This document shows, piece after piece, positions 14,469 to 53,913 of a DNA stretch of 64,000 nucleotides. Position 1 is the stretch's first letter; each line of letters opens with the position of its first letter. The stretch covers positions 8,451,700-8,515,699 of the forward strand of contig NC_088654.1 of the NCBI RefSeq assembly GCF_964019385.1, written 5' to 3'. Made by a program: the position numbers and the translations under genes. The notes under the pieces were generated by a model that was not told the origin of the DNA, made no database searches, and saw only the letters and a list, made by a program, of their open reading frames with translations. The stretch comes from Sycon ciliatum. Taxonomy: Eukaryota; Porifera; Calcarea; Leucosolenida; Sycettidae.

Positions 14469-17400
14469 TGTGTGTGTGTGCGCGTGTGTGCAGATGCGAG
14501 CTGCTGCCAATCTGGGCACGGCTTACTTTGCACTGCGGCAGTTTGACGCCGCGCTGAGCTATCACCGACGACAGCTGAGCATTGCAGCACAGCTGGGCGA
14601 GGAGGAGACTCAAGCGAGTGCCTACAATGCACTTGGCATGTGCTACATCGACATGAAGCAACCGGCCGAGGCTCTGCAACACCTGCAGAACGGTCTGAAG
14701 GCGTCGGCTCACTTACAGGTCAGCGTGGTGATGTTTTGTCTTGTGCTGTAATTGCACTGTAAACTCCACAGTGATCTCCATTAGAAGTGGCTGAGATGAC
14801 TGTGTGTTTCTCACCCCCGGCACATAATTATACTGGCATACAGAGATCCATGCGTAGACACCAACAGCAGTAGCACACGAGTTTAGGGGTAGGTGACCGA
14901 AGGCAATATCTACTGTGCTTATCATACCTTTGGGAACCTTTGCAAACCTGGGGAAAGATCAATGACATAGAGTACCTAGCTAGCAGTCAGCAATGTCGTT
15001 AGGTTGAGCACTCTTACCTTAGCGTGAAACGCTCACTGCTCTTGGAGCATTTCGAGCACTCTTGGCGGGGTTTGCAGCTCTTTATAAAAATGCTTTGCTT
15101 CACGGAAACGTATTTCATTGCGAAGAGCTGCGCTTCGGTCCTCTGAGCTGTGCTGAGGAGCTCTAAGAGAGCGAAACAGTTACCGTCCACAGATTTGAGT
15201 AGCTATGAAAATGTATACAAATGAAGCTGTGAGGCATGCGGCTAATACACTTTTGGGTGCCTATTACCACCCTCGATATCGGGACGGTCACGGCCAAGTC
15301 GAGATGGTTGGAAGGCATGGTTTATTTTTGATTTTTAACCTTTTTTCCCATCTGATCTCCTTGGAAATTGGTTAAGATTTTTTTGGTTCATTTGTATTGT
15401 GTTAGGTGACTGGATTACAAGCTGAATTGCGTATGAACTTGGGTCTCGCACTGCATATGTCTGGGAAGCAATCGGAGGCAAAGCGACAGCTGGAGACGGC
15501 CATTGCTCTGTTTGAACGAACAGCTCAGGCCATCATAGAGAAAGGTTAGTGTGATATGGTGCTTCTGTCTTTTACAGGAATGACTTGACTCCGCATAACC
15601 ATAATATACGTTCGGTATGTCTGTGTGCACAGACGTGTCACGTAATTGTGACGTTTTGCCGTGCCCCGTGTGTGTGTGGGGGGGGGGGGGGGGGGGGGGG
15701 GCGTTCACTGAACTCCTCTTCATGGTGACATTTTATATCGCGTCTGTAAAACTCAAGGGTGGCAAGCCATATCATCAGAACCTAAATGAGGCAAAACGAA
15801 AACACAGGAACGCCGTCCGATTTTCTTCTCTGTTCACCATGCTATTGTGCTCCTCTCTGCTAATCACTTTTTAACTTTAATGTAGCTATGTACGTTTATA
15901 CAGTATCACCTGCCAAGGCGACCACCTGTCCTTGAAGACCACTGAAACAACGACCAAGGGATGCTATTTCCAGTCAATTGACCCTGGATAAGGAGACCAC
16001 CTGGTAACAGAGACCACATTTTGAAGGTCCCTTGAGCGGTCGTCCTATACAGGTTTCACTGTATTTGAATTCGCAGAACGAAACGGGCGGTGTCGCCCAA
16101 TTACATGGAAGCGAATGGAAACAATAAATTATTGTAGAAAATAGCCGAACATGATAGCAGTGTGCGTGACCAACTCACATTCTACCACTTTCGGAGCTGT
16201 ATCTGCACCGTGGTCCTTGCGAGCGGTGACATTACTATAGATGTGGGGAAGTGTGTATGACAAACACTTACACAAATCACTATTAAATAGTAATTTGTAC
16301 AAATTTTGTTTTTTTCTTCATGTGCTGTTAGCTTCAAGTAGTGGTCAGTTGCGCCTAGTCGTGCACTATCAACAATTGTCATTGGAGACACTGCAGCAAG
16401 TCCTGGTGTCCCTTGGCGACAATCACAACGCACTGGCTGTGGCTGAGCAGTGTCGCATCAAGGCGCATCAACACATCCTTCTGGAGAGGCAGGTAAGCCT
16501 GAGCCAGTGCTGTAGGGCCATCTCGCACGTCTACTGTCGTGTATATCGACACACGATGGGATGACCGGGGCCGGCGCCCTAACTGGATTTAGCCCGTACA
16601 CACACTGTAGTTGACGTGCACACTGTAAAGATGGACCAGCAGTGCTCACGGATGCAAGGCTGGCACCCCGTGGCCGCTTGACTTCTCAATGGATTTCAAT
16701 GTCCACAAGAGTAGCAAACATTCTGCATTGCTTGTACCGTGCTGGCCAGAGAAATCCAACCTCATGAATAAAAGTAGCTCCGCGTTCGAGTGCACAGAAC
16801 AGTGTGTGCAGTGTTAACTTAGAGCTGCGTAGCGCCCGGGGTTGGATTTCTTTAGCCAGGACCGTCCAGTGCTTGTTCTGGCCACCTATCCCTTATATCC
16901 TCGGTGTGGCACATATGGTATGATTTCTTCGCCGCTCGCACAACAAATCTTGGCCGCTCACGTGACGAGTCCGGAACTAACACCGTGGACCTTGGCCATG
17001 CGAAGACGCAACTACGCAGTCTCCTTGCATGGCTCAGTAGATTATTGACAGGTGTCCTGCAGTAGGGGAATTCCCAGATTGCTAGACTGGGCAACACCAC
17101 CAGGATGTAGTAATGTAGTAATGCCACAAAGGCAGAAAAGAACAGCGACGATCGGCTGAATTATCGTTGCAACGCCGCGTTTCATGCGCATAGCAAGGCT
17201 GAGGCAATCCTGATGATCTGTTCATCATCTGGCCAGGCAAGTTGTAAAGCGTAGCATTGTCGTTAGCGAGACATGGCCATGGTGTCAACTCACATGAGAG
17301 GTGAAGAGAAGCTGCTTGTTGTGTGCTGAGATTGCCGTGCCTGATTCTTGTCGCACCGATGCAGGTTCAAATCCCGACGCTGGTCAAAGCCGGCTTCATT

Positions 17401-23400: not shown

Positions 23401-26400
23401 GCGACGGTGACGACTCGTCGGGTACGGACTCCGCCGCCCAGCTGGGTGACGATCGCATTGCCGACCTGTCGGAGCTGCTTCTGACACCAGTGGATGTGCT
23501 GCAGATGAAGCTGGCCAGTGTGCGTGTGGTGGTGCTGGGTGGTTGTCATTCTACAGGCCTTGGACAGGTGAGTGATACAGGAGAGTTGTAATCAGAGGAT
23601 GTCTAGCCTTTATCAGCTGGGTCATTGTGCAGTGTGAACCGTTTTACCAAGTGCACTAAAACCTGTCCTAACCGGAAACCTTTGGCGCAGTGGAAACTGT
23701 CCTGATGTGACAGGATTCCGCTTGATCCAGGGATGTCCCATTTGATCCACAGCACTTTGGTGCATGAATCTTTGTTTGTCAATGCAGGACTCCACTTGGC
23801 ACACGGTCTGGAAAACACATGTTTTCTGTACTTTGGACAGCTGTGTGGGGAGATTCTGTGGTCTGAGATCTGGAAGGTTTTGCTTTGAGGTCATTATAGT
23901 GTTTTTTTTGTGGGGGGTTTTGGCGGCAGCGGCTTCTATCAATATGGAGTGTGTGTATTGTGTACATGTGTGTATGACTGTGTGCGTCTGTGTACATCCA
24001 TGGGTATGTCTGTGTGGATGCTTCTGTGTATGTGTGCGTGTGTGTGTCTGTGCGTGCGTCTGTGTGCGCTCTTCCATGTTGCACCGTGTCCGTGCACCTG
24101 TGTATACAACACACTTGTCTATCTCTTTTCAGATTAGTGCAGACGGAATGATGGCACTGTGCACCAGCTTCCTGGCTAGTGGCGTGTCGTGTGTGGTCAT
24201 GCCATTATGGCCCATTTCACCACAAGCAGGTTAGTTAATACTTCACTCTGTTTTTTTTTCATGTACCGTATTTTCCGGAGTATAAGCCGCCCTTTAAACA
24301 CCAGTATTTGACCCCCTAAAAGTCAGCTTAGTGCGGCTTACACTACGATGGCCAAGTTGATCGTGATAAACAGGGAATATGTCTGTGTGTCCATCACAAG
24401 AATCCGGGTGCGGCTTATTCTCTCGATAATACGGCAGACCTTCGTGTAAGAAAAATCCAGGAGAGTGAACAATCACTCTCGCTATCCTCTCAAGGAGAGT
24501 GGTGGAAGAGCAGTCCCCCCCCCCCAACAAAAATCGCTCGCCTTATCTATCCAAGGCAAGCACAATACGGATTTTTTCAATATCTTGCCATACCCCAATC
24601 GGATTCAATACCCAATAGCTGCCAAATTCGATCTGGAAAATCGCCGTACGCACTACAAATGAAAGCTGTTGGGACAACAACTTGAGTTTTCCTTCATCAA
24701 TTTTGACAATCTCAAGCATTCTGGGAAGCTATTTGCAAGAGAAACACACCAGTGGGATTTTCACCAGTAGGAGTGCGACTGCAGTGGCACTATAGCCCTG
24801 GGAAAAGACGCGCAACGGGAAATTGAGACAATCCGCTAAGATCCATGGTATTTTTGTAGTATTTAGAACGCTCCTTTCTTTTGTAGCTGACCGCTAGCAC
24901 GCTGAAAACCTGTGCCTGACGTCACACAGGTCTATGCATGCAAGGACTGTCGACATGTCACGCAACAGAGGGAAATCCTTTATGTCGAAATTATGATTGC
25001 CACCCAAGTGCAGAAGTGAAAATTTGCAATGGGACGTAAAATACCTTGCGAGTGCCGTAACTCCGTTATTCGACCTTGGATCGACTTCGGATTTGTTGGA
25101 GTCGACAGCTGAGAACTTTCTAATGCGAATAGACCTTTCTTTTGTAGCTGACCGCTAGCACGCTGAAAACCTGTGCCTGACGTCACACAGGTCTATGCAT
25201 GCAAGGACTGTCGACATGTCACGCAACAGAGGGAAATCCTTTATGTCGAAATTATGATTGCCACCCAAGTGCAGAAGTGAAAATTTGCAATGGGACGTAA
25301 AATACCTTGCGAGTGCCGTAACTCCGTTATTCGACCTTGGATCGACTTCGGATTTGTTGGAGTCGACAGCTGAGAACTTTCTAATGCGAATAGACCTTTC
25401 GATTACTCAATTCCGTTCAGAGGAAGCCGATTTACGAAATATTTGAGTGTTTGCAGAATGCACTTAATAGTGATGCGGATGCGCTCGAAATTCTCAAGGC
25501 GCGCGACGAAAAGTGCGCCCAAAATGAAAATAAGGAGAGTGAAGGCGCGCGAGAGCGATCGCTCTCCTTTTACCAGATGCTCTGATACGGTATGTACACC
25601 TTCTATCCCCGTGCTGGATAATGAAACCTACCCGCCTGAACCTACCCGCCTAAACCTACCCGCCTGAACCTACCCGCCTGAACCTACCCGCCTGAACATA
25701 CCCGCCTGAACCTACCTGCCTGAACCCACCCGCCTGAACGCAGCAATGCTGTGTTCGTGTATACAGTTCGATGTACGTAGTGCTAAGAAAATCTCCTGGA
25801 ATTGTTTCAGGCCTTCAGGCGTGTATCAGCAGTTTGCTATGTGACATTGACGGGACTTCTTTTTCCTCCAAAGAATAGAGGCTATGGCACATCTTTCGCA
25901 TGACCCTGCCGAGCAGCCTTGCTAGTTCCAACTGCCCCTGGCTATAAAATATACAGCAAGGACCCTAGATAATTTGACTATCTGCATTTTGTGTTGGTCT
26001 TCTTCCAGGCAAACTGTTCATGGCTGCGTTCTACAACAGCTTGCTGAGAGGCAGTCGTGCCAGCAGAGCTCTGGGTTATGCCATGCACAAGGTATTGGAT
26101 CTAGGCTATCTTTTGTTGTTGGGTTTGGCGAATCGCACTGCACTTCTAGAACTTCTGATTCTTTCCCCGGCCAATGGCATACTTTTATTTGCGTCGCCAA
26201 TGACGTAATTGTGTAAAGATACTCTTGTCCCGATGGCAGTCGTGAGTCAGTCAAGTGTCAAGTTCGGCAAGAAGCGTGTGTTCCTAGTTGGAACAATCAA
26301 CTTCATGACTATTGCCGCCGAAGTCGCAACTTCTAAGTTCATACTCTTGTTTTGTGTAAAAAAGAGAAAAAGAAGGTGGCATTTGGACATGGGATTTGAG

Positions 26401-36159: not shown

Positions 36160-36286
36160 GGGGGGGGGGGGGTATGTGTGTGTGTGGGGGGGGGGGGGGG
36201 GTTGGAGAGGGGGGGGGGGGGGGGTGACAGCGAAATGCATGTCCACTGACACTGTACATGTACAACCCCCCCCCCCCCCCCCCCTC
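36160..36286 (+). repeat. Poly-G and poly-C runs
   Basis: Three G runs (about 36160-36225) then a 20-bp C run (about 36266-36285). The G and C runs could fold on each other. Any frame through them is uncertain because run lengths may be misread. Confidence 0.8.
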
Positions 36287-36429
36287 ACCACCACCATCAC
36301 AAGCACCAGCATTAACATTAACAAACTCACTTGTACTTGGAGTCCCTTCATATTTGTGTACGACATCATGTTTTCACCTTCTTCAAGTGGTTGGGGAGCC
36401 AGGTCCAGGTTCGATAGTAATTGAGCCGC

Positions 36430-44134: not shown

Positions 44135-44737
44135 TGATATTTTAATAGAAAAGTTTTGTTCCAATTTAAGAATCGGAAAACCACCCGCAAACCCATGTTT
44201 GCCTTTCACACTGATTTTGAAATCTTGTTTGTGTGAGTCATGTATCGAATAGGAGAAAGCATCAGTTTGGTCAATATCGATATACTATCATGAGCGGAAA
44301 ACGAACACAAGAGAACTGCACGCAGAGATCGTTGAATCAAAGTTGATGGCATGATTATGGCTTTGTTTGCAACTTCAAAGGGCTATTCATGTCCCAGCAG
44401 TAAGGTAGACGCAGGACGGATGTACACTATCTATAGCCAATGTTAATAATGACTACCTCCGCAGAACAACAGCTATCGGTAATCTGGATGCTAAATAGAA
44501 GGACAACTTTATAGGTACTTTGGTTCAAGGGCGGACCAAGTGCTTGAAATGCTTAGTGGACGTAATGCAAGATATACACTAAGGGATGAACGCACCGGGA
44601 ACACCATAATTATTACGTTGAGTTCAATGGACCTTCTCTAATCCCTTTGGCTGGCCGTCATGGGAACTTCAGTTCATGCATCTTGCAAGCATTACCTCAG
44701 AAGTGACGACAAATTCGTCCATTTGAAATAATCTTAA

Positions 44738-45334
44738 CCCGTTCACCTCTCCACACTGCGCTCCCTGCCCACATTCACAACATCACTCCAAGGAGTGGCA
44801 GCGGAGGAACCTCACACGGCGTGCGGGCAGTGCAGCGAATGCCCCACGGGCCTCTGGGACTGTCGTCTCGGCCTTCCGTTTCTCTCACCTCATGATCACG
44901 TCACTATGGGACGGTTACTGCAATCTATCATTATGCATGTATACTCGCTATGTACGTGGCAACGTTAGTCCCAACTTCTACAATGTAATAGATGGTCTGC
45001 TTCTTCACTTGTCTAAATTCTAGCGCCATCTGTATGCATGTTTCAACAGCACTGTGCATTTCGTTATCACCTTTAGAACCTTTGTCACCTTCAACTTATT
45101 TCGGTGTGCTACTGTGACATTTCTTAGCAGAATGTGCGCAATTGCGCCACGTTACCCTATAAATCTACTCATTCCTGAATCTGCTATTCATTCGTTATCT
45201 ACCTCCACTGAGGAGCTCCTAATGAGCGAAACAGCTGTCTGGAGGATATAGAACATCTACCCTAGAACGAACTTCCTAGCTATGGAGTGGTGTTGTGAAT
45301 GTGGGCCAAGTGCGCAGTGTGGAGAGGTGAACGA
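44738..45334. mobile_element. TTAA-type MITE 3
   Basis: 597 bp, flanked by TTAA (44734-44737 and 45335-45338). Long inverted ends GTTCACCTCTCCACACTGCG and its reverse complement continue inward for about 45 bp (CCCACATTCACAAC). Inserted in the pseudogene. Confidence 0.7.
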
Positions 45335-45552
45335 TTAAGATTATTTGCAAGCATTACGTGGAAAATAAGGCCTAGTTCATCTCGTGTCCCAGTTCGAGCG
45401 GCGTCAGAGAGGTGGCCACATCGTAATCTTTCCGTTCTGTGACATCCGATCACTTTCTTTCGGCGAGATTCTGATGATTCGTATCGAGTGCTGTACAGGT
45501 GACAGCAAAGCAAGTTCTCTACCAAGCATTTTCTAGTAAATGGATTATGATT

Positions 45553-46072: not shown

Positions 46073-46916
46073 TTTGTTCTGCTGTGAATGGAGCGTCCCT
46101 TTAGATTCGTTTGATGGGGGATGGGTTGACCTGAAGAGTACTGGTGGTACTTTTAGTGCACCGTCCTTAACAGTGACCGACTGCCGGCCCGACCATCACT
46201 GCATCAGCAGACAACATTCTACCTGAAGAAACAGCTTACGCCGATGACGTAGACACTTCATCTCCACATCAAAATCATTCCTTACCAGCGCCCTACCCGT
46301 CATCGCAGGCGTTTTCTTCCGATGTGGTCTTGCCGTCAATACCAGTAAGGCTGAATGGATCCGTACTTACCTGGAACCCACTTTGGGAGATGCACCTCTA
46401 CAACATCTAGAAATGTCGGCACAACTCGTGGTAAAGACGCTTGGCGACAGGTGAAGACGCTTGGCTCGCTGTACGGCTAGGGTGAAGACGTGACGCGCCA
46501 TATTGGCTTGGCTGCAAGAGCATTTGGAGACACTCTAAAGTTATGGTTCAAACGCAACCTGCTTTCCACAGGGCACAACACTATTCGCCTTCTCGGTCCC
46601 ACCTTATGGTGATTGAACCTTCCAAGTTGAAAGACCATTGGTTTGCGCACTGGAGTTATGTTAGAGCTAAGTCTTAGGTCGTTGAATATCTCAGTAGCTT
46701 GTCAGTTTTGTGCCCTGTTATCGCACATTCTGATTGCTGATTACCGTGTTACAGTCGTGGGAATTAGTTGCTTCATAACTCGTTCCCAAGTGATTTCTTC
46801 TATTTTGTAAAAGGACTTCATCCTTTTTATAAAGTTTGTACAGTATTCCCTTTCAATCGTTCAAAGATTATGTTGAATTGTGTTGTAGAAGGAATCGCAT
46901 TACATTCCGTGATTTT

Positions 46917-47203
46917 TAGGGCTGCAACGGGTAGGGGTTTGGTCGGTTAACGGGTTCGGGTATTTTTGTCCCGGTAGCACGGGTACTCTATGGGGTATTT
47001 TATGGCACAGTTTGTACAGTGAGTGTGCACTTGCGCTGCATAGAAAGCATACAGTAAGCAGGTAGCCGTGTTTTTCACATGCACCGTTGCAAAAACACCG
47101 TACTCCAACTAGCCGATCGGGTTCTAGCAAATTGCTACCCTACTACCCGATCAAATAACGGGTAGCACGGGTATCCTACTACACGTACTCGTTGACACCC
47201 CTA
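46917..47203. mobile_element. hAT-type MITE
   Basis: 287 bp, TAGGGCTGCAACGGGTAG ... GTTGACACCCCTA. Flanked by GTGATTTT / GTGATTTC (8 bp, one mismatch). Interior CGGGTAGCACGGGTA blocks are shared with 515-790. Confidence 0.75.
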
Positions 47204-47239
47204 GTGATTTCGACATGACTGTATGTAGACATACTCAAT

Positions 47240-47284
47240 CTGCGGACAGAACTGTTTCGTCCTTTGTGGACTCGTCAGCGCAGC
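47240..47284 (-). ncRNA. Type I hammerhead ribozyme, copy A
   Basis: Read on the - strand: helix I strand CUGCG; core CUGACGA; helix II GUCC-ACAAA-GGAC; core GAA; helix III ACAG-UU-CUGU; then C17 as the cleavage site; helix I return strand CGCAG. All conserved core bases are present and helices I (5 bp), II (4 bp) and III (4 bp) pair perfectly. The very short helix III is typical of retroelement-borne animal hammerheads, which often cleave best as dimers. Confidence 0.85.
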
Positions 47285-47465
47285 ACAGAGGAAATGAGGC
47301 CGAACCTGATAGCAATGGAAATAAAAATTTCCAATCAGGCCCGAACGTACCTTGTCAGAGTGCTCAAACTGACAAGTCAGTGAGCTCTGCATAACGCAAA
47401 CAGCAAAGGCACTACCCCACGCAAGAGTGCTCAACTGCTACAAGAGCAGGAGCGAAATACTCAAT

Positions 47466-47510
47466 CTGCGGACAGAACTGTTTCGTCCTTTGTGGACTCG
47501 TCAGCGCAGA
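47466..47510 (-). ncRNA. Type I hammerhead ribozyme, copy B
   Basis: Same core, helices and cleavage site as copy A, 226 bp away in the same orientation. Self-cleavage at both would release a 226-nt monomer. Confidence 0.85.
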
Positions 47511-47565
47511 ACAGAGGAAATGAGGCCGAACCTGATAGCAATGGAAATAAAAATTTCCAATGTAT

Positions 47566-48315
47566 GTAGACAGTTTCCTCTGAGACAAAAATGCGATAAT
47601 ACTCATAAAAAGGACACACTTCAGGCTCATTACAAACATCTTGAAAGTTTTTGTCTTCACAAGTATACTTTCAAGCCTTCTCGTCAGGTGAAATACAGGC
47701 AAGGGAAAAGGAACAGGAACAGTGGATTAAATACAGTAAGAAGGTGGTAAAACAGCGCAAAAAAAGAAAGAAAGAAAGAAGATAGCTAAAGTAAACAGCG
47801 AAAATTGCAATAATGACACAAAGGTGCAAATGCGAGAAAACTCAATAAGCGTGACATGTAGTGCGACAACAAGAGACAACCAGTGGACATACATGTAACT
47901 AACGAGGGTTTGACGACCTACCTAACAGCCTAAGTGTGAATTTGATTTGTTTCTGCTTGCAAAGGTTGGGTTTCTTTGTGTGGATGTATACAGCTTCCAA
48001 AACATTCAGCAATCTAGCACTGCGTACACGTGACACAATCGAAAAACAATCATCTGAATACACAGCACGACAATCAGGATGCTCAAACAAATGACTAGCA
48101 ATGGACGACTCATACTTATCAGAACTAACATCAGAACAATCAGCATGTGAGGTGGACACATCCGATTTCACATGGCTAGTCGAGTAGACCCTAGCCGTTG
48201 CCTCTGTCTGTACTTTAGTCGCTGCCATCGCCGCCGTTGCCGATCTTGTCATTTCAAGATGTTTGTAATGAGCCTAAAGTGTGTCCTTTTTATGAGTATA
48301 ATGTATGTAGACATA
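47566..48315. repeat. Inverted repeat around the Penelope-like ORF
   Basis: About 47566-47645 and 48242-48315 carry the same block (TAGACA..., TACTCATAAAAAGGACACAC, ATGTTTGTAATGAGCC) in opposite orientation, enclosing the reading frame. Confidence 0.6.
47899..48252 (-). CDS. Penelope-like element ORF fragment, 117 aa
   Basis: C-terminal half reads S-S-I-A-S-H-L-F-E-H-P-D-C, then F-S-I-V-S-R-V-R, then V-L-E-A-V-Y-I-H-T-K-K-P-N-L-C. This spacing (S-A-I-x-x-H ... R ... E-A-x-x-I ... P-x-L) resembles the end of the GIY-YIG endonuclease of Penelope-like retroelements. The GIY-YIG motif itself and the reverse transcriptase are not here. The paralog at 52483-53277 has the same layout, and hammerhead repeats lie 3' of it. 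Confidence 0.5.
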   Translation of the reverse strand: MTRSATAAMAATKVQTEATARVYSTSHVKSDVSTSHADCSDVSSDKYESSIASHLFEHPDCRAVYSDDCFSIVSRVRSARLLNVLEAVYIHTKKPNLCKQKQIKFTLRLLGRSSNPR

Positions 48316-48799
48316 GTATTTTCCCTTTCGCACAATTGACGGGAGAGGGGGGGGGGATTTTTACCATTAACTGTTGAACACCTATCCTTTTCACACTTTT
48401 CCTCGCACCTCATATTAGTATTCTAAAGATTTCGTGGTATTAAAACAGAAGAAATCACATGGAAACGAGTTATGAAGCAACTTTCTCACAACATTAGTTT
48501 ATTGTGCTATAAGTAGTAGTTCTATTGGCCAATTTTGGTGGCCTGTTTGCCACTTCGGCGATACTTGGGGCCGAAGTCGCACCTTCTTTACATCGTTGTC
48601 CCCAGCGCGAGCTTCCGAATAGATGGCTTGGAGACAACAACGTGGTGAATGGCCAACGGTCCTCAGTGCTTGTTCTGCATCACCAAGAGCGACACTGACT
48701 AACGTTGCTATCTCAGTATCTGGTGCTCACGAGGAGTTTATTACCCTAGAAACGGAGCGTCTCTGTGTAGCAAGAAGGACCCATCAGTGTGTGTGATCC

Positions 48800-53277: not shown

Positions 53278-53308
<31 letters not shown>

Positions 53309-53310
53309 GA
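53276..53310. repeat. (ATT)n microsatellite
   Basis: About 30 bp of ATT between the AT-hook ORF and the SINE pair. Similar tracts at 52163, 53870 and 54353 mark element boundaries. Confidence 0.85.
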
Positions 53311-53590
53311 CTGATTTGAGGGAAAGAGACAAACGGGAAAAGTCTGAAGAAAAATTGACTGTCACCACCAGGACTCGAACCAGGGACCCTCGCTTGTAGC
53401 CAGCGATGCTCTAACCACTGAGCTATGGTGTAGTCGTCATCCCAGCAGAGGCCGTCCAACATTTTCTTCAGACTTCGTAACTCACACTTCCTGTGAATCC
53501 ACACAGGCGGGTGGGACGCAGCCCTCACTGTAACCCACACACTTCACGTACAAACTAGCACGCGGGGAGCCCCAAGTCATACAATATTGA
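53311..53590 (-). mobile_element. tRNA-derived SINE, tandem copy 1
   Basis: On the - strand 53435-53365 reads as a tRNA-like head with A box TAGCTCAGTGGTTAGAGC and B box GGTTCGAGTCC. The anticodon stem is perfect (TCGCT/AGCGA), the loop reads CTA, and only five acceptor pairs are possible. The head is enclosed by AGTCTGAAGAAAA and its complement. A 5' extension precedes the head. Confidence 0.75.
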
Positions 53591-53870
53591 CTGATTTGAG
53601 GGAAAGAGACAAACGGGAAAAGTCTGAAGAAAAATTGACTGTCACCACCAGGACTCGAACCAGGGACCCTCGCTTGTAGCCAGCGGTGCTCTAACCACTG
53701 AGCTATGGTGTAGTCGTCATCCCAGCAGAGGCCGTCCAACATTTTCTTCAGACTTCGTAACTCACACTTCCTGTGAATCCACACAGGGGGGTGGGACGCA
53801 GCCCTCACTGTAACCCACACACTTCACGTACAAACTAGCACGCGGGGAGCCCCAAGTCATAAAATATTGA
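53591..53870 (-). mobile_element. tRNA-derived SINE, tandem copy 2
   Basis: Direct tandem duplicate of 53311-53590 with period 280 bp and only a few differences (for example GCGATGC versus GCGGTGC). Confidence 0.8.
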
Positions 53871-53913
53871 CTATTATTATTATTTGAAACTCGGATGTTG
53901 AGCCATAAATAAA

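What the first reader, a model, noticed from the sequence alone, without database searches (positions are those of the whole stretch)
47231..47565. Two tandem hammerhead ribozymes beside a Penelope-like reading frame
Seen: on the - strand two copies, 226 bp apart in the same orientation, hold the complete hammerhead core (CUGACGA ... GAA) with perfect helices I, II and III and a UC cleavage site. Known: Penelope-like retroelements and retrozymes of animals carry tandem type I hammerheads with very short helix III in their terminal repeats. Inferred: 47.2-48.3 kb is the 3' part of such an element, and transcripts would be cut into a 226-nt unit that could circularise.
Basis: partly seen in the sequence, partly recalled or inferred. 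Interest (0 to 1): 0.82.

Follow-up and report, generated by a model that had tools for sequence, protein, structure and literature searches.

The report
Hammerhead retrozyme with Penelope-style insertion
Two self-cutting ribozymes here belong to a tiny retroelement built of 226-letter units, and its insertion marks resemble those of the Penelope-like element beside it, which suggests (but does not prove) which enzyme copies such elements.

Summary
In detail: two type I hammerheads, 226 bp apart on the minus strand, match Rfam Hammerhead_1 (34.0 bits, at the cut-off, and 30.1, below it). The hammerheads are not the end of the Penelope-like element (PLE). They form a separate 328-bp retrozyme insertion (1.45 units of 226 bp) whose family makes tandem arrays elsewhere in this genome. 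The reading frame at 47.9-48.3 kb is the 3' end of a different, high-copy PLE; none of 19 other loci with that 3' end has the hammerhead unit. Both sit in one target site: a 14-bp duplication flanks the pair and a third copy lies between; one detail suggests that the retrozyme came first. Retrozyme insertions end at one fixed point 11 nt past the ribozyme cut, where the sequence (TGAGTATT; TGAGTATTAT in a second, related retrozyme family) equals an RT start site of the PLE. Target duplications are 9-15 bp (PLE: mostly 12). Units are more alike within dispersed arrays than between them; in clustered arrays they are not. Best reading: retrozyme RNA, probably circular, is copied by PLE machinery. 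Retrozymes are known, and PLE mobilisation was proposed in 2020. No RNA data and no LINE control here.

The parts
47234..47561 (-). RZ1 retrozyme insertion, 328 bp = 1.45 units of 226 bp (from ATTGG to the final GAG)
   Evidence: 108-nt direct repeat at spacing 226; same unit in arrays elsewhere; borders from the target duplication
47465..47510 (-). hammerhead type I, copy A; predicted cut 47471|47470
   Evidence: Rfam RF00163 34.0 bits; coordinates
47239..47284 (-). hammerhead type I, copy B; predicted cut 47245|47244
   Evidence: Rfam RF00163 30.1 bits, below gathering score; coordinates
47245..47470 (-). 226-nt monomer expected between the two cuts
   Evidence: inference, no RNA data
47456..47464 (-). 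internal copy of the RT-start motif TTGAG|TATT, 11 nt past cut A; the insertion's own 3' end is the equivalent GAG at 47234
   Evidence: 3' ends of retrozyme insertions; PLE start site
47220..47233 (-). right copy of the 14-bp target duplication TATGTCTACATACA
   Evidence: (D2)
47559..47571 (-). middle copy GTCTACATACATT; its last bases TT belong to the retrozyme start
48302..48315 (-). left copy TATGTCTACATACA, followed by TT and the inverted PLE arm
48252..48299 (+). inverted arm of the PLE insertion (PLE1), ending at RT-start site 1 (GAGTAT)
   Evidence: inverted repeat 96%; same arrangement in other copies
47572..48251 (-). PLE1 forward part, 5'-truncated, ending ...GAGGAAACT (RT-start site 2 region); site 1 GAG at 47602-47604
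47902..48255 (-). C-terminal part of the PLE1 protein, open fragment
   Evidence: 95% over 101 aa to the L034 frame; no Pfam hit on its own
14980..15199 (+). second retrozyme family (RZ2) in the same window, 88% to the RZ2 unit; hammerhead 15148-15192; ends GATTTGAG
44696..45347 (+). older PLE-type insertion (PLE2) with inverted arm and a minimal hammerhead 45202-45245 (helix I CCUCCA/UGGAGG)
   Evidence: weak Rfam HH9 hit, 23.8 bits against a cut-off of 52; inverted arm; many genome copies end at 45342-45350; 13-bp duplication TTGCAAGCATTAC 44683-44695 / 45345-45357
46766..48482 (.). older inverted-repeat element (41-bp arms 46766-46806 and 48442-48482) that holds both insertions

Best explanation
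The two hammerheads are the repeat unit of a non-autonomous non-LTR retrozyme (RZ1). Shown by sequence: the unit, both ribozyme motifs, the insertion borders, the target duplications and the family elsewhere in the genome. Inferred: transcripts of an array cut themselves into 226-nt monomers and a host ligase closes them to circles. A PLE RT-endonuclease recognises the TGAGTATT start motif just past the ribozyme, nicks the target, primes inside the RNA there and copies back through the ribozyme, often more than once around, so that the new insertion is a short tandem array with a fixed 3' end, a variable 5' end and a duplication of about 12 bp. A linear cleaved monomer could not serve, because the start lies only 11 nt from its 5' end. 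In this window RZ1 probably inserted first; PLE1 then cut the same site in RZ1's left duplication and left a truncated copy with an inverted arm.
For: Retrozyme identity. Separate from the PLE. Same target around and between both. Fixed 3' end: 29 arrays end TTGAG (chosen on that motif; three further pieces, in L007, L039 and L065, lack it); RZ2 ends TTTGAG in 8 of 8 loci L096-L103, while the L093 array ends TTTGTG. Duplications: PLE1 12-15 bp in 12 of 18, nine exactly 12; RZ1 9-15 bp in 15 of 21 arrays outside microsatellite loci, against 7 of 416 mispaired flanks. Start motif: 8-nt run (RZ1) and 10-nt run (RZ2) shared with PLE1 site 1 in register; over 14 nt RZ2's is the best of 251 registers. 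PLE1 geometry fits a published PLE: site 2 at ORF nt 113-116 against 111-118. 23 of 29 insertions exceed one unit. Within-array distance 0.011 against 0.028 between 21 dispersed arrays, 0 of 1000 permutations.
Against: The motif is short and was noticed after the fact: RZ1 shares other 8-mers and one 10-mer with the 760-nt PLE piece; over 14, 16, 20 and 24 nt RZ1's register is reached by 4, 9, 27 and 8 of 226, RZ2's by 1, 1, 2 and 5 of 251. An overall local alignment of RZ1 with PLE1 is not significant. RZ1 and RZ2 are related, so not independent. Searches for convergent PLE/retrozyme pairs found none. 6 of 21 RZ1 arrays show no duplication, and three of the C11 rows share flanks. With the C11 and C13 clusters included, within- and between-array distances are equal (0.039 and 0.040); L002 and one L047 array are heterogeneous. 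No empty copy of this target was found. No LINE control. The lowest-energy fold lacks helix III. Copy B is under Rfam's cut-off. No RNA data.
Confidence: 0.68

Rival explanations
1. A true retrozyme, but mobilised by a LINE or another RT; the PLE landed beside it because both favour similar AT-rich targets.
For: Motif identity is 8-10 nt only; convergent PLE/RZ pairs 0 in two searches; no LINE control done.
Against: No consistent poly(A) or other added tail at the retrozyme 3' junctions read (L005 has five A after GAG); duplication size and internal fixed start resemble PLE1 and PLE2; both elements used one site here.
Confidence: 0.24
2. One PLE carrying tandem hammerheads in its terminal repeats.
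For: The two lie side by side in one orientation; PLEs are known to carry type I hammerheads (PMC7229834, PMC7761336 passages), and this PLE keeps CTGATGA at its ORF start in 30 of 31 matched copies.
Against: 0 of 19 other loci with the PLE 3' end hold the unit, and the unit occurs without the PLE; a copy of the target lies between them.
Confidence: 0.04
3. A satellite spread by DNA recombination, with relic ribozymes of no present role.
For: Heterogeneous arrays cluster on C11 and at C13:15.67-15.90 Mb, where units within an array are no more alike than between arrays.
Against: Dispersed copies with target duplications and fixed 3' ends; paired changes in the ribozyme stems.
Confidence: 0.04

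Closest known systems
Metazoan non-LTR retrozymes (Cervera and de la Pena 2020, PMC7229834)
   Same: Type I hammerheads in short tandem repeats (170-400 nt; coral 220-240 bp), no LTR, GC under 50% (0.491 here), duplications longer than 4 bp, PLE in the same genome.
   Different: In the sections I read, PLE mobilisation is a proposal and no fixed RT-start motif or target shared with a PLE is described. No RNA tested here.
Canonical Penelope/Poseidon PLEs, e.g. PAc of Anolis (Frangieh et al. 2024, PMC11167929)
   Same: Neighbour PLE1: ORF start inside the hammerhead core, two internal RT-start sites about 30 nt apart (the 'tail'), inverted arms as expected if both target strands are extended.
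   Different: RZ1 has no PLE reading frame, has a hammerhead with a 3-bp helix III, and its RT start lies 11 nt past the cut (PLE1: about 59 nt, if its assumed cut is right).
Plant LTR retrozymes (as described in PMC7229834; their own paper PMC4918200 seen in the search listing only)
   Same: Non-autonomous hammerhead elements thought to spread through circular RNA.
   Different: Those have type III hammerheads, LTRs, PBS/PPT and 4-bp duplications.

Membership tests
Metazoan non-LTR retrozyme | type I hammerhead | tested here: met
   Rfam RF00163 34.0 and 30.1 bits; only copy A reaches the gathering score
Metazoan non-LTR retrozyme | tandem units of about 170-400 bp | tested here: met
   226 bp; arrays elsewhere
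Metazoan non-LTR retrozyme | target duplications longer than 4 bp | tested here: met
   14-bp outer duplication; 9-15 bp in 15 of 21 RZ1 arrays outside microsatellite loci
Metazoan non-LTR retrozyme | GC under 50% | tested here: met
   0.491
Metazoan non-LTR retrozyme | no LTR, PBS or PPT | not tested
   5' ends vary between copies, unlike LTR elements; PBS and PPT were not searched
Metazoan non-LTR retrozyme | circular and linear unit-length RNA, self-cleavage | not testable with these tools
   no RNA data or bench work
PLE (the hammerhead unit as PLE terminal repeat) | unit joined to the PLE in its copies | tested here: not met
   0 of 19 loci L010-L028
PLE (neighbour PLE1) | RT plus GIY-YIG in one frame | tested here: inconclusive
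   L034 frame of 963 aa: RVT_1 E 1e-4 and GIY-YIG E 0.027, both below Pfam's cut-offs
PLE (neighbour PLE1) | inverted arm, optional tail of about 30 nt, short target duplication | tested here: met
   sites 1 and 2 at ORF nt 83 and 113-116; arms and duplications
PLE (neighbour PLE1) | hammerhead at the ORF start | tested here: inconclusive
   CTGATGA at the ORF start in 30 of 31 matched copies, but no Rfam hammerhead hit at E up to 5

The most novel reading that the evidence does not exclude
Animal retrozymes are derivatives of PLE terminal repeats: a self-circularising RNA that keeps the ribozyme and the PLE's internal RT-start motif, so that PLE reverse transcriptase rolls around the circle and writes tandem arrays. 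RZ2 and PLE2 hammerheads share helix II, the G at core position 7 and helix III bases (local score 59, 0 of 500 shuffles; RZ1 46, 1 of 500; part of this is the obligatory core), and RZ1, RZ2, PLE1 and, more loosely, PLE2 carry related start motifs.
Probability: 0.38. Interest if true: 0.75.

Novelty: new member of a known kind. Interest (0 to 1): 0.55.

Why it matters
Which enzyme spreads animal retrozymes is open: PMC7229834 and PMC7761336 name PLEs as likely candidates from co-occurrence, tandem copies and shared ribozyme type. Here the insertions themselves speak: a fixed start motif shared with a PLE, similar target duplications and one target used by both. That turns the question into a short in-vitro test, since a PLE protein assay exists (PMC11167929), and gives a sequence signature to look for in other animals.

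Tried and rejected
Single-element reading rejected. Empty-site test with joined flanks: among 97 matches (40 of 791 candidates scored) only the locus itself and the inverted-repeat ends matched, so no empty copy was seen. Similarity of RZ1 to PLE1 as a whole: not significant (947 of 1000 shuffles scored as high). L039 and L047 looked like single-event head-to-head retrozyme insertions; L039 has a damaged second end and L047 has target-like filler in the middle, so I do not claim that. Convergent PLE/retrozyme pairs: none; RZ1/RZ2 convergent pairs: 3 places, two with identical letters. In L031 I first took GAGTAATCGCG as RZ2's motif; array units read GAGTATTATGC in 7 of 9 units fetched for this, with one base different in the other two, and in one of two in L093. 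RZ2 duplications were not measured systematically. The statement that the PLE/retrozyme insertion link is unreported rests on paper searches only; Cervera 2014 and Lunse 2017 are not held and are known to me through citations.

Full report
Observation. Both hammerheads are present at the stated place on the minus strand: 47510-47465 (34.0 bits, exactly Rfam's cut-off) and 47284-47239 (30.1 bits, below it). They sit in a 108-nt direct repeat at spacing 226. Cuts are predicted at 47471|47470 and 47245|47244. The lowest-energy fold has helices I and II but not helix III. Forty distinct variants, taken from 108 places in the fetched loci with a pattern that fixes most of the core, show 89.4% of cells paired; 4 pairs and 9 cells change on both sides, above shuffles (reached by 2 and 0 of 500) and above slid versions, while further pair types are not above shuffles (483 of 500). 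The commonest two-sided change is C-G to U-A in helix II (6 of 40 variants); helix III shows none.

What it is. The window lies in an unnamed 538-Mb genome. A search with the 338-bp insertion gave 48 matches, 40 of 252 candidates being scored, so a lower bound. The unit forms arrays in L002-L004 without any PLE tail and in many other fetched loci. Clustered arrays on C11 and at C13:15.67-15.90 Mb are heterogeneous. This is the anatomy described for metazoan non-LTR retrozymes (PMC7229834: abstract, first of three parts of Results, Discussion and passages read).

The neighbour. The 755 bp on the other side gave 117 matches, 40 of 1454 candidates scored. Forward copies read ...GAGGAAACT and then diverge within a few bases in the 20 loci L009-L028; none of the 19 other than the window's own holds the hammerhead unit. 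A longer copy in L034 has an open frame of 963 aa with weak RT and GIY-YIG matches below Pfam's cut-offs; the window fragment is 95% identical to its C-terminus over 101 aa. That frame has an ATG inside CTGATGA; 30 of 31 copies matched by a pattern with one free core base keep CTGATGA, the window copy has CTGACGA. Two RT-start sites are seen: site 1 (from GAG, ORF nt 83, to a few bases beyond) at the inverted arms of 16 of 18 elements, one more using site 2 and one lying further inside; and site 2 (about ORF nt 113-116) at the forward ends, which were selected for reaching that far. The published PAc element starts at nt 111-118 and its ribozyme cuts 26 nt past the ATG (PMC11167929, first two of four parts read); here the assumed cut is at nt 24, but Rfam finds no hammerhead there. 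Rotifer PLEs have a 31-bp optional tail, inverted repeats and duplications of 8-10 bp (PMC3846280, passages read).

One target, two insertions. TATGTCTACATACA occurs before the inverted PLE arm and after the retrozyme; a third copy of its GTCTACATAC part lies between them. The left and middle copies share two further bases, TT, which the right copy lacks and which are the start of the retrozyme. The simplest order is retrozyme first, PLE second into the retrozyme's left duplication; a chance TT would be about 1 in 16, so this is suggestive only. Another PLE copy has the related duplication CTACATACTTTA (L033). No empty copy of the site was found.

Insertion signature. RZ1 arrays end at CGCAGATTGAG, 11 nt past the cut, followed by target. 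I analysed 29 arrays; 8 that run off their locus, 4 duplicates and 3 pieces without TTGAG (L007, L039, L065) were left out. Of 21 outside microsatellite loci, 15 have duplications of 9-15 bp and 6 show none; mispaired flanks reach 9 bp in 7 of 416 (3 of 410 without pairs inside the C11 cluster). L043, L046 and L055 of that cluster have similar flanks and are not independent. In 9 of the 15 the detected duplication itself begins with TA directly after GAG. PLE1: 12 of 18 have 12-15 bp, nine exactly 12; 3 lie in microsatellites, 1 in a repeated flank, 2 show none. An older PLE2 insertion in the window (44.7-45.35 kb) has 13 bp. RZ2, a second retrozyme family with a 251-bp unit, ends at CACAGATTTGAG in 8 of 8 loci L096-L103; the L093 array ends TTTGTG. 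An RZ2 copy lies in this window at 14980-15199, and two paralogues of the L031 site lack the insertion. RZ1 and RZ2 occur as convergent pairs in one target at three places, two with identical letters.

Shared start motif. At the start point PLE1 site 1 reads TTTATGAG|TATTATCGC, RZ2 GATTTGAG|TATTATGC and RZ1 AGATTGAG|TATTTCGC. PLE2 has CGATTAAGATTATTTC, but many of its copies end 3-11 nt after AAG, so its register is looser. Over 14 nt RZ2's match to PLE1 is the best of 251 registers and is reached by 10 of 187,246 register pairs; RZ1's 8 of 14 is reached by 4 of 226 registers and 2,520 of 168,596 pairs; wider windows are weaker. So RZ2's match is notable and RZ1's modest. The comparison was made after seeing the data, and RZ1 and RZ2 are related.

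Mechanism. Because the start lies 11 nt from the 5' end of a cleaved monomer, only a circle or an uncleaved multimer can template the insertions; 23 of 29 exceed one unit. In 21 dispersed arrays (52 units; 14 loci of the C11 and C13 clusters left out) distance within arrays is 0.011 against 0.028 between, 0 of 1000 permutations as low, although L002 and one L047 array go the other way. With the clusters included there is no difference (0.039 and 0.040, 153 units). Copying one circle several times explains the dispersed arrays; later tandem duplication of DNA could too. Cleavage, circularisation and the identity of the enzyme are inferred.

Known and new. Retrozymes and PLE hammerheads are known; that PLEs move retrozymes is stated as likely in PMC7229834 and PMC7761336 (passages read of the latter). 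I found no report of the insertion evidence in searches. I file RZ1 as a new member of a known kind whose insertions make the partner question testable.

Noticed in passing
window 14980-15199 (+): A copy of a second retrozyme family, RZ2 (unit 251 bp elsewhere), with hammerhead at 15148-15192.
   Followed up: partly
window 44683-45357 (+): Older PLE-type insertion (PLE2) with inverted arm, 13-bp target duplication and a minimal hammerhead (45202-45245) whose helix I, CCUCCA/UGGAGG, differs from those of RZ1 and RZ2 yet pairs fully; 900 first-look candidates in the genome.
   Followed up: partly
G000 C1:14563729, C1:14668240, C2:41581388: RZ1 and RZ2 inserted tail to tail in one short target.
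   Followed up: no
window 24873-25400: Perfect tandem duplication of a 261-bp unit.
   Followed up: no
window 53305-53872: Tandem pair of a 280-bp unit, each with a tRNA-like stretch.
   Followed up: no
window 36171-36320: Stretch with many weak miRNA-precursor matches on both strands, all below the cut-offs; perhaps a long inverted repeat, not checked.
   Followed up: no
window about 46917-47203: Small DNA transposon, perhaps hAT-like (ends TAGGGGTGTC / GCAGCCCTA; label recalled), between the retrozyme and the right arm of the 41-bp inverted-repeat element.
   Followed up: no
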